Origin: Methylomicrobium sp. wino1
GTDB taxonomy: Bacteria; Pseudomonadota; Gammaproteobacteria; Methylococcales; Methylomonadaceae
Length of the DNA stretch: 64,000 nucleotides
NCBI RefSeq assembly: GCF_003932755.1
Contig: NZ_CP024202.1
Location: 1,488,001-1,552,000 of the forward strand
Direction: 5' to 3'
Positions 10,806-12,224 of the stretch are shown piece by piece. How positions within the stretch are numbered: position 1 is the stretch's first letter; every line of letters starts with the position of its first letter. The notes beneath the pieces were generated by a model that saw nothing but the letters and a program-made list of their open reading frames with translations, was not told where the DNA came from and did not search any database. A program made the position numbers and the translations under genes.

Positions 10806-10898
10806 GGATTTCGCGAAAAATAAGCTTTTGGAGTTATGAGCTTTGTCCAGGGGGTTCGGTAACTCGCCTGGCAGGACGCCGTAAATACGTCCATGTAG
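10806..10898 (+). repeat. Left half of chimeric MITE (family-2 arm), split by IS110
   Basis: The stretch starts GGATTTCGCGAAAAATAAGC immediately after the upstream stop codon and ends GTCCATGTAG at the IS boundary. It matches the left arm of the family-2 copies at 25113 and 46016. The other half of this repeat is at 12225-12306 and belongs to family 1, so the original element was a chimera. Confidence 0.8.
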
Positions 10899-10939
10899 AT
10901 ACTCTGTTTAAAATCAAGTTAAAAATAGGCATTTTTCTG

Positions 10940-11974
10940 CTATTCAGCGATTGACGGAATTGCATAAAAACGCGTGTTATCGAATGGTTTATCATGCTTG
11001 AGCATGCCGTGAATCGCATGTAACAATTTACGCATGACCGCACAACAGGCTTGCAACGGTAATTTACCCATATCAAGGAGATGTTGGTAATACGCCTTAA
11101 TATGGCGATCATGCTGCACAGCGCTCCAGACAGGCATATACAGGGCGGCGCGAATCTGGCTGTTACCGGCCTTGGATATACGCGTTTTTTTGTGGACACT
11201 CGTGCCGGAATCAAAAGCTCTTGGATCGAGCCCCGCAAACTTGACCCACTCACGGTGCGACATATCCGCAGGCAAAATCAGTAGTTCTCCCATGAGGGCA
11301 ATCGCACTGGTATTGGCAATACCCTTAATGGTCGTGAACAAAACTAATGCTCGACTGAGTTCCGGATGTTTTTCGATCAATGCCAAGGCGCCAGCCGTTA
11401 ACTGATCGATACGCTTATCTAATTGATCGATGGCTGCTTGTGCATCTTTTAGCACGGCTTTGGGTGTTTCAACTGTTGCGCTTAAGGCATGCAACTGATT
11501 CTTTGCTGCTGTTTTTTGATCGGTTAGCGCATTAATACGGCGTGAGAAACAACGTAAAGCGATCTTTTCATTCGAAGGACGGGACCAAGGCACAAAATCC
11601 ATCCGTTCGGCATACACCGCCAGAGTATTCGTGTCCACATCATCTGTTTTACTATTGTTCATCAACACTTTAGCAAAGTTATGAGAGACCTTGGGATTGA
11701 TGACCATTACCTTGACGCCGGCATCATGGAGCGCAACGGCTAAATCGAAATGATAACTGCCGGTGGCTTCCATACACACGATAATGCCGGACAATTTGTT
11801 CAGTTTCTTGGCCATCCGGGCATGATCAGCTGGGGTATTGGAGAACTTCTGCGGATTGAAAGGTTTGCCATTTTTGCGCACCACCAAAACCAGTTCTTTA
11901 GATCCTACATCGACGCCAGCGAAGATACGGGTTTGTGTGTCAAGTGAAGCGCTGTTAATTTGTTGATCTGCCAT
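10940..11974 (-). CDS. IS110-family transposase (RNA-guided recombinase)
   Basis: A 344-aa full-length protein with the two family domains. The N-terminal DEDD RuvC-like domain has FAGVDVGSKELVL (first Asp), VCMEATGSYH (Glu) and NSKTDDVDTNTLA (Asp pair). The C-terminal domain carries FTTIKGIANTSAIALMGEL and the KFAGLDPRAFDSGTSVHKKT region with the conserved serine SKAGNSQIR nearby. These two domains jointly form the composite active site in IS110 enzymes such as IS621. The long helical linker (about 150-200) matches the family. No frameshift or stop interrupts it. Confidence 0.95.
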   Translation of the reverse strand: MADQQINSASLDTQTRIFAGVDVGSKELVLVVRKNGKPFNPQKFSNTPADHARMAKKLNKLSGIIVCMEATGSYHFDLAVALHDAGVKVMVINPKVSHNFAKVLMNNSKTDDVDTNTLAVYAERMDFVPWSRPSNEKIALRCFSRRINALTDQKTAAKNQLHALSATVETPKAVLKDAQAAIDQLDKRIDQLTAGALALIEKHPELSRALVLFTTIKGIANTSAIALMGELLILPADMSHREWVKFAGLDPRAFDSGTSVHKKTRISKAGNSQIRAALYMPVWSAVQHDRHIKAYYQHLLDMGKLPLQACCAVMRKLLHAIHGMLKHDKPFDNTRFYAIPSIAE

Positions 11975-12009
11975 GTTTAATTGTTATTCTGTGATAAGGA
12001 AAGTAAACT

Positions 12010-12165
12010 AGTCATTGGTTCCCGACCCTGCGTATGCACCTACCATCCTTGTGAATGCAGGCTCTAAGCCTCAGATACTCCGCGGTATAGGTGAATAGGG
12101 CGGGGGCCAATCTACATGACAGGCTCTGGTTTAATCCAGTCCTCAGGCTCAAGCGGCCTCCCAAT
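12010..12165 (-). ncRNA. Predicted IS110 bridge RNA
   Basis: The transcript would be read on the minus strand from the noncoding end upstream of the transposase. Reading 5' to 3', it contains AGAGCCT (12127-12121), two bases later CATGTAG (12118-12112), then GAGTATCT (12080-12073) and ACAAG (12052-12048). The first two match the left and right halves of the insertion site (AGAGC-CT and CT-ACATG, pairing with opposite strands). The third equals the element's own right terminus including the core CT. The last is complementary to the start of its left terminus (CTTGT). This order is that of the target-binding loop followed by the donor-binding loop in IS621. Ends of the RNA are approximate; the 5-nt right donor guide is weak on its own. 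Confidence 0.8.
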
Positions 12166-12224
12166 GAACTCGGTACAGCTTAAAGTATTTCCTGGCTAAA
12201 ATTCATTTAAATTAATCATACAAG

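What the first reader, a model, noticed from the sequence alone, without database searches (positions are those of the whole stretch)
10899..12224. IS110 element whose bridge RNA guides can be read and match its own insertion site
Seen directly: the element interrupts a repeat whose intact copies read, on the transposase strand, GGCATAGAGC-CT-ACATGG. In the noncoding end upstream of the transposase the same strand carries AGAGCCT, GT, CATGTAG (12127-12112). AGAGCCT equals the left target half plus the CT core; CATGTAG is the reverse complement of the core plus right half (CTACATG). Further along, GAGTATCT (12080-12073) equals the element's right terminus with core, and ACAAG (12052-12048) is complementary to its left terminus (CTTGT). 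Known for IS621: the RNA has a 5' target loop and a 3' donor loop, each with left and right guides, and a CT core. Order, strand and core all agree. Inference: this is an intact RNA-guided recombinase with target specificity for the repeat family of its own host.
Basis: partly seen in the sequence, partly recalled or inferred. Interest (0 to 1): 0.92.

Follow-up and report, generated by a model that had tools for sequence, protein, structure and literature searches.

The report
Jumping gene deletes itself at its guide
The window holds an ordinary RNA-guided jumping gene of the IS110 family, with one of its four guides misread; but shortened copies here and in E. coli suggest that the DNA encoding such a guide can itself be taken as a recombination site, so that the element deletes most of itself and leaves a short scar.

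Summary
The element is real: a 1326-bp IS110-group IS (window 12224-10899, minus strand) in a host repeat at AGAGC-CT-ACATGG; 13 of 13 full copies read in its genus sit at GAGC-CT-ACATGG. Its left target guide (AGAGCCT, 12127-12121) is wrong: that is a conserved stem strand. The true one, CTTGAGCCT (12153-12145), covaries with target over 23 elements (P about 5e-5).

The surprise is in shortened copies. At seven loci in the genus, left-end-only copies are fused, at an internal core, to the right target half; five of seven breakpoints lie at sites resembling left target or left donor, guide DNA included. E. coli IS621 shows the same: remnants ending exactly at the left target guide at three loci, an estimated 730-765 records among 5,426 genomes. 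At one locus, two strains read hold the intact 1279-bp IS621 between identical flanks. Best reading: the bridge-RNA recombinase takes its own guide DNA for the left junction and excises imprecisely. Not demonstrated by experiment; no description was found in the library searched.

The parts
10899..12224 (-). Complete IS110-group element, 1326 bp; position 1 (C of the CT core) at 12224; the second CT core lies just outside at 10898-10897
   Evidence: 3 identical copies in own genome; junctions compared
10940..11974 (-). DEDD/serine recombinase (transposase), 344 aa; candidate catalytic residues D22, E69, D111 or D112, D114, S256
   Evidence: Pfam PF01548 8.7e-24 and PF02371 8.2e-20; NCBIfam NF033542 203 bits, cut-off 140; alignment to IS621, PDB 8wt6; residue numbers; the catalytic role of these residues is recalled from the IS110 literature, not tested
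12005..12184 (-). Bridge-RNA region in the left end (approximate; the stretch used for the alignment)
   Evidence: 40-pair structure, 96.3% of cells paired on 14 sequences, 6 pairs with a change on both sides, 0 of 500 shuffles as high on these two measures
12145..12153 (-). True left target guide, CTTGAGC-CT (element 72-80); breakpoint of derivative L089
   Evidence: covaries with left target over 23 elements; derivative
12121..12127 (-).
   Evidence: invariant in 14 of 14; paired; derivatives
12112..12118 (-). Right target guide CATGTAG; the following AT (12111-12110) extends the complementarity to ATCTACATG, the right junction, as a handshake guide would
   Evidence: 7 of 7 match to CTACATG; RTG-RT matching above shuffle over 11 elements, P=0.003
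12073..12080 (-). Left donor guide GAGTATCT, equal to the right terminus plus core; breakpoint of derivative L005
12059..12065 (-). Second AGAGCCT, 3' strand of the donor-loop apical stem
   Evidence: GAGCCTG invariant in 14 of 14; helix never varies, so it is supported by pairing only
12048..12052 (-). Right donor guide ACAAG, complementary to the left terminus CTTGT; followed by an invariant G
11923..11928 (-). Internal GTAT-CT in the recombinase gene; breakpoint of derivative L004
12225..12244 (-). Left half of the interrupted host repeat (..GGCATAGAGC)
10879..10898 (-). CT core copy and right half of the interrupted host repeat (CT-ACATGG..)

Best explanation
This is an IS110-group insertion sequence whose left-end bridge RNA directs its DEDD/serine recombinase to CT cores in a host repeat. 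Its left target guide is a sense copy of the left target half including the CT core, so the guide's own gene is a half target. In normal excision the enzyme would recombine the left junction (LT-CT-RD) with the right junction (LD-CT-RT). Sometimes it takes an internal CT preceded by LT-like or LD-like sequence, including left target guide or left donor guide DNA, in place of the left junction. The result is a precise core-to-core deletion of the recombinase gene (all or most of it) and, in most cases, part of the bridge RNA, leaving a left-end scar joined to the right target half. The same happens in E. coli IS621. Shown: breakpoints, core precision, sequence preference, recurrence at different loci, and intact counterparts at the same E. 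coli sites. Inferred: the direction intact-to-remnant, that the bridge-RNA recombinase does it, and that normal excision is guided in the same way.
For: Seven genus derivatives (L004, L005, L006, L072, L087, L088, L089) at different loci, all joined at the core to ACATGG or ACAGGG. Of 58 internal CT sites, 5 of 7 events fall on 4 of the six sites best matching LT or LD (permutation P 2.2e-4 by contiguous match, 2.4e-3 by seven-base match). The two breakpoints share only 2 bp in 5 of 7 events (sites 80, 87, 104 twice, 136). IS621 in E. coli: remnants ending at the left target guide were read at znuB (L180, L181, L203, L204), the flg locus (L199, L201, L202, L205, L220, L221) and msrQ-zinT (L200). 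The junction for wild-type IS621 was written before it was seen and matched 43 of 43 bases in 30 of 30 listed records (2,188 records not listed). Control junctions: CT87 no exact match, CT116 no exact match, CT49 one true case. Before/after: intact IS621 at msrQ-zinT in both strains read of 29 (L217, L218), identical to the remnant strain over 740 bp on the left (666 bp of flank plus the 74-bp left end) and 701 bp on the right. At znuB the intact element read (L219) and remnants L203 and L204 share a left guide changed to GTATCCGAC-CT, matching that site's TTATCCGAC-CT. In IS621 the left guide is the CT site most like LT or LD among 70 examined.
Against: No experiment. Two of seven genus events (87, 136) are at CT sites with little LT or LD similarity, and one E. 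coli event (CT49) matches only the last two bases before the core. If only CT sites in the first 330 or 250 bp are allowed, the preference weakens (P 0.010-0.030 and 0.036-0.063). In the window's own IS family, fusion at the true left guide was found in 1 of 311 genomes, against 30 of 311 with unfused guide sites; none among 9 copies in G094, 6 in G134 and 5 in G060. Five of 12 partial genus copies with both flanks are not of this type: L007, L077, L082, L085, L091. Two genus junctions (sites 152 and 302) share 8 and 6 bp and could be slippage. The genus gives no before/after pair. Only three other CT sites were tested as controls in E. coli, with exact junctions only. Most E. coli records are probably descendants of one event per locus. 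No strain tree was built, so the direction of change is assumed.
Confidence: 0.83

Rival explanations
1. The short copies are ordinary deletions between short direct repeats (replication slippage or microhomology repair), without the recombinase.
For: Two genus junctions share 8 bp (site 152) and 6 bp (site 302).
Against: Five of seven genus junctions, and IS621 sites 74 and 49 in the reference copy, share only the 2-bp core. Yet the right breakpoint is at the exact element end, and the left one recurs at different loci (104 twice in the genus, the IS621 left guide at three loci).
Confidence: 0.06
2. The short copies were never full there: a left-end minicircle (internal CT joined to the left terminus) formed elsewhere and was inserted, or an insertion was abandoned after first-strand exchange.
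For: It would give the same junctions; identical wild-type 74-bp remnants exist at two E. coli loci. No strain tree was built to show intact-to-remnant change.
Against: The right end of such a minicircle lacks the donor sequence the left donor guide needs. At msrQ-zinT and znuB an intact element occupies the same site in other strains, and the znuB remnants L203 and L204 carry the same variant guide as the intact element read there.
Confidence: 0.1
3. One reading: AGAGCCT is the left target guide and the L006 and L088 deletions are at the guide itself.
For: AGAGC-CT equals the left target of 11 of 13 full genus copies; two derivatives break there.
Against: CAGAGCCTGT is unchanged in 14 of 14 sequences with different targets and paired in the consensus fold. 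Over the 23 rows AGAGC matches the last five bases of the left target at 5 of 5 in the window's element and at 1-4 of 5 in the other 22, while the variable block gives 2-5 of 5.
Confidence: 0.02
4. Plain IS decay or assembly error, with breakpoints where they are by chance.
For: Several other partial copies (L007, L077, L082, L085, L091) look like decay.
Against: Core-exact junctions at seven loci of the genus, three of them in the single-contig own genome, and the same E. coli junctions in many separate assemblies.
Confidence: 0.01

Closest known systems
IS621 and its bridge RNA (IS110 group; Durrant et al. 2024 PMC11208160, Hiraizumi et al. 2024 PMC11208158)
   Same: Left-end RNA with target loop 5' and donor loop 3', left guides on the 5' side and right guides on the 3' side, CT core, repeat-targeted insertion, homologous recombinase. 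Programmed excision between target and donor on one molecule was shown, and rare genomic deletions and inversions between insertion sites were reported (PMC11208160 passages)
   Different: The protein is a distant homologue (phmmer 1.2e-38). What I saw of the two papers (abstract, sections 6, 7, 8, 12 and passages of PMC11208160; passages of PMC11208158) does not describe deletion at guide DNA; 'self-target' and 'solo' occur 0 times in PMC11208160. Supplements were not seen
ISEc11 and other IS1111/IS110 elements with seekRNA (PMC11187229, section 7 and passages read)
   Same: Circle formation needs the noncoding RNA and intact target sequence on both sides
   Different: That work did not detect rejoined flanks after excision; the scars here are rejoined flanks, with an internal CT as left partner
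Self-targeting and self-avoidance in CRISPR systems (recalled)
   Same: A guide's own gene matches what the guide recognises
   Different: No PAM-like rule is known to exclude the guide gene here; only the missing right half limits it
Solo-LTR formation and MITE-like internal deletions (recalled)
   Same: A terminal scar is left while the coding part is lost
   Different: Here the breakpoint lies at guide or guide-like DNA at a 2-bp core, not at long terminal repeats

Membership tests
IS110 group of the IS110 family | DEDD RuvC-like domain plus C-terminal Tnp domain with the serine | tested here: met
   PF01548 and PF02371, NF033542 above cut-off, alignment to IS621
IS110 group of the IS110 family | Long noncoding left end that holds the RNA, short right end | tested here: met
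   Left end 250 bp, right end 41 bp; conserved structure in the left end
IS110 group of the IS110 family | CT core at both ends and a promoter formed at the circle junction | tested here: met
   CT at both ends; TTGATT-17-TATGAT across the joined ends, promoter activity not tested
Bridge RNA | Target loop with guides that covary with the target | tested here: met
   LTG 5.09 of 6 against 3.41 shuffled, P about 5e-5, 23 elements; RTG 5.73 of 7 against 4.99, P=0.003, 11 elements. The rows are related, so not fully independent
Bridge RNA | Donor loop with guides that covary with the donor ends | tested here: inconclusive
   Complementarity is present but donor ends and donor guides are conserved in these relatives
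Bridge RNA | Expressed, bound by the recombinase and needed for recombination | not testable with these tools
   No RNA reads or assay
Bridge RNA | Handshake pairing of non-cognate strands | tested here: inconclusive
   CATGTAGAT is complementary to ATCTACATG; left targets end in C in 23 of 23 rows and the right donor guide is followed by an invariant G; consistent only
IS1111 group | RNA in a long right end | tested here: not met
   Right end 41 bp; RNA in the left end
IS1111 group | Subterminal inverted repeats of 7-17 bp | not tested
   No search for inverted repeats at the element ends was run

The most novel reading that the evidence does not exclude
Bridge-RNA elements carry an unavoidable suicide site: the left target guide must include the core, so its gene is a half target for its own excision complex. 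Excision in nature is then bridge-RNA-guided and leaves guide-terminated scars, a recurrent and recognisable class of remnant (by estimate about one in seven complete E. coli genomes). Absence of the CT core from the left donor guide, in IS621 and in 8 of 14 aligned sequences of this family, would be an evolved escape from the donor-side version.
Probability: 0.6. Interest if true: 0.82.

Novelty: new variant of a known kind. Interest (0 to 1): 0.72.

Why it matters
Hiraizumi et al. [quoted passage not shown] Scars ending at the guide are natural products that fit such excision gone wrong, and they can be counted in thousands of genomes. The znuB locus looks like a natural guide swap. For genome engineering, keeping the bridge-RNA gene in cis with a right junction predicts some self-deletion at the guide; supplying the RNA gene elsewhere should avoid it. 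The E. coli remnants listed carried no annotation under the match (15 of 15 rows, 30 of 30), so they would mark unnoticed former IS110 sites.

Tried and rejected
Rfam at gathering scores gave no family in the window. Single-sequence folding of the RNA was no better than shuffles (z -0.82, 38 of 200 as good), so the structure rests on the alignment, where one of five measures, further pair types, is not above shuffle (77 of 500). RNAalifold's donor-loop pairs were replaced by a hand-written donor loop that fits the published layout; this is my choice. My first idea, that L006 breaks at the guide, was dropped when AGAGCCT proved to be a structural stem. Flanks of the seven derivatives: 23 orthologous stretches for six of them (none found for L072) hold no copy of the IS in the stretch read, so the genus gives no before/after pair. 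RE-only remnants: one 37-bp case (L216), not explained. A pattern for guide-fused scars over the one-genome-per-species collection gave one hit, a chance match without a left end in Pseudomonas caspiana. L207 looked like a CT49 scar but is a point mutation in a longer copy. LTG joined to ACA instead of ACG: no exact match, the best rows being the ACG scars (25 rows listed). L110, L111, L117, L136 and L139 in other genera end at various points and could not be assigned. Literature: nine searches; no report of such deletions seen in the listings or in the parts read. Choi et al. 2003 on IS621 is not held; nothing of it was seen.

Full report
1. What is there. The element spans window 12224 to 10899 on the minus strand, 1326 bp, with a CT core at each side. 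It encodes a 344-aa IS110-family recombinase homologous to IS621 and ISCro4, whose structures are in the PDB. It lies between a MIF-like and a P-II-like gene. The genome, one contig of 5.06 Mb, holds three identical full copies and 37 exact copies of AGAGCCTACATGG, with none for the reversed control pattern; one of the 37 is the site re-formed in L006.

2. Target use. In the six genomes of the genus I read 13 full copies with both ends (3 own, 1 in G010, 4 in G037, 5 in G060; the drafts G078 and G093 have broken ones). All 13 sit at GAGC-CT-ACATGG, 11 of them at AGAGC-CT. More distant copies (about 70-74% identical) in other genera keep the same ends, CTTGTATGAT and GAGTAT-CT-A, but sit at other targets.

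3. The guides. Those relatives allow a covariation test. A block just upstream, between GGCCG and GAGGA, changes with the target. Over 23 elements its last six bases before the core match the element's own left target at 5.09 of 6 positions, against 3.41 when targets are shuffled (P about 5e-5, the floor of 20,000 shuffles; the elements are related and the rows were typed by hand, with the omissions told below). In the window it reads CTTGAGC-CT (12153-12145); it matches the own targets at 5 of 6. Copies in G094 (9) and G134 (6) show that right targets vary beyond CT-A, so right-side specificity is loose. Donor guides are conserved together with the donor ends.

4. The fold. A 40-pair structure with a target loop and a donor loop has 96.3% of cells paired on 14 sequences, with 10 cells changed on both sides against 2.5 in shuffles, 0 of 500 as high; the best slid version pairs 51%. 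In it the true left guide lies on the 5' side of the target loop, the right guide on the 3' side, and AGAGCCT is the 3' strand of the apical stem. Ten of the twelve donor-loop pairs never vary, so they are supported by pairing and little by covariation. Folding the single sequence gives no significant stability. The joined ends of a circle would form TTGATT-17-TATGAT, a promoter-like sequence as reported for other IS110 elements; its use is inferred.

5. Truncated copies in the genus. Besides full copies, one search found 16 partial matches. Leaving out three that end at contig ends (L071, L076, L081) and a different IS (L090), 12 have both flanks. Seven of these start at the normal left junction and end at an internal CT (now TT in L087) joined to the right target half, ACATGG or, in L088, ACAGGG: L089 at element position 80, L072 at 87, L006 and L088 at 104, L087 at 136, L005 at 152, L004 at 302. 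The other five (L077, L085, L007, and the orthologous L082 and L091) are not of this type. The seven lie at different places; 23 orthologous stretches in the other genomes, for six of the seven, lack the element, and one (L152) shows the empty target at the place of L089. Position 80 is the true left target guide, 152 the left donor guide, 104 the stem that happens to equal the left target in this genus, 302 an internal GTAT-CT. Ranked by contiguous match to left target or left donor, the best six of 58 internal CT sites are 104, 152, 166, 1178, 80 and 302; five of seven events fall on four of them (binomial 2.1e-4). The preference is weaker when only the first 330 or 250 bp are allowed (P 0.010-0.063). 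The two breakpoints share only CT in five of seven; at 152 and 302 they share 8 and 6 bp.

6. The same in E. coli IS621. I took IS621 from public records and searched 5,426 E. coli genomes with its first 411 bp: 2,234 records match, 1,661 of them over at least 80%. In the evenly spaced listing, 15 of 60 rows held only 81 bp. Two of these 15 were read: behind znuB, TTATCCGAC, then the left end from CTTGTATT, then ..CTTATCCGAC-CT joined to ACGG. That is the left end up to and including the left target guide, which here matches its own target. A 101-bp query over this site, with about ten bases of flank on each side, matches 554 records at 99% or more and 136 at 95-99%.

7. A prediction and controls. 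I then wrote the junction expected for wild-type IS621, left end to GTATCGGGC-CT plus ACG. All 30 listed records matched 43 of 43 bases (2,188 more not listed). In the spaced listing of the same query, 2 of 60 rows match 43 of 43 without mismatch, which puts such records between about 38 and 75 of 2,218, and 20 of 60 rows cover all 43 bases with at most 3 mismatches. Seven perfect cases were read, six and one: six at one flagellar-gene locus (L199, L201, L202, L205, L220, L221) and one at msrQ-zinT (L200). Two of the two-mismatch cases (L203, L204) are at znuB with a second guide variant, GTATCCGAC. Controls with other CT sites plus ACG: site 87, no exact match; site 116, no exact match; site 49, one true case at ybiT-ybiU and one point mutation. 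So E. coli shows three loci at the guide and one elsewhere, out of four CT sites tested; the znuB one was found without choosing the site. Adding 554, 136 and 38-75 gives an estimate of 730-765 records with such scars; only 11 were read, and most are probably descendants of one event per locus.

8. Before and after. With 120 bp of msrQ-zinT flank joined to 180 bp of IS621, 29 records match over at least 80%. Two were read. Both hold the intact 1279-bp IS621 at exactly this site, identical to the remnant strain over 740 bp on the left (666 bp of flank plus the 74-bp left end) and 701 bp on the right. The remnant lacks 1205 bp between the guide's CT and the right-end CT. At znuB four records match over at least 80%; the one read (L219) has an intact 1279-bp element, 98% identical to IS621, whose guide is GTATCCGAC-CT as in remnants L203 and L204, with flanks about 97% identical. 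The direction intact-to-remnant is the simple reading; I built no strain trees. The flagellar locus was not examined for intact copies.

9. Mechanism. In normal excision the left junction (LT-CT-RD) would recombine with the right junction (LD-CT-RT). Guide DNA offers LT-CT, or LD-CT, inside the element and in the same orientation. Recombination with the right junction deletes everything between, precisely at the core. The left target guide cannot avoid this, since it must contain the core. The left donor guide can: it ends in CC in 8 of 14 aligned sequences, and the IS621 segment that equals its right terminus reads ACAGTATCA (its identity as the guide is inferred). Programmed excision with target and donor on one molecule has been shown for IS621 (PMC11208160 passages). 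Hiraizumi et al. [quoted passage not shown] for ISEc11 circle formation needed the RNA, and the authors did not detect rejoined flanks. The scars described here favour RNA-guided, rejoining excision in the IS110 group, but indirectly.

10. Limits. The window's own IS family shows fusion at the true guide once (1 of 311 genomes, against 30 of 311 with unfused guide sites), and other multi-copy genomes show no such scars (G094, G134, G060). Some events use poorly matching CT sites. No experiment was run. Papers: of PMC11208160 I saw the abstract, outline, sections 6, 7, 8, 12 and passages; of PMC11208158, PMC1525189 and PMC12859917 passages; of PMC11187229 section 7 and passages; the rest as search listings.

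11. Verdict. As an RNA-guided IS the finding is a new member of a known kind, with one guide misread. The guide-terminated deletions, found through it and shared with IS621, are the part of interest, and for them I rate it a new variant of a known kind.

Noticed in passing
L179 1290-2991 (E. coli, plasmid record CP061270.1): Tandem IS621: the first copy stops at element position 425 (GCTGG-CT inside the gene) and a full second copy starts at that CT; it looks like reinsertion at an internal deletion point.
   Followed up: partly
L183 601-1725 (E. coli strain WEC, near cpxA): Tandem of left end 1-116 ending at CT, directly followed by a second copy from its left terminus.
   Followed up: partly
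A1 alignment, left donor guide; IS621 left end: Left donor guides often lack the CT core (CC in 8 of 14 sequences, CA in the matching IS621 segment), while left target guides keep it (14 of 14); possibly self-avoidance.
   Followed up: partly
left targets: The base before the core is C in 23 of 23 left targets, as expected if a donor-loop handshake G pairs with it.
   Followed up: partly
L216 (G010:C1:1951259-1951295): A 37-bp right-end-only remnant, the only one found in the genus away from contig ends; origin unclear.
   Followed up: partly
L007 1501-1531 (own genome 625577-625607): A 31-bp exact fragment of left-end positions 3-33 at a site without the target.
   Followed up: no
L077, L085, L082/L091: Partial copies ending near 103, 134 and 43 without the right target half; L082 and L091 share their flanks in two species.
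   Followed up: no
L144 (G052), L062 (G044): A second copy in G052 has no recognised right end in the stretch read; L062 seems to have lost the part between positions 214 and 755 but keeps both ends, a possible non-autonomous element.
   Followed up: no
window, families D1-D19: The window is rich in composite intergenic repeats, and several target sites in the genus are followed by a nested repeat unit.
   Followed up: no
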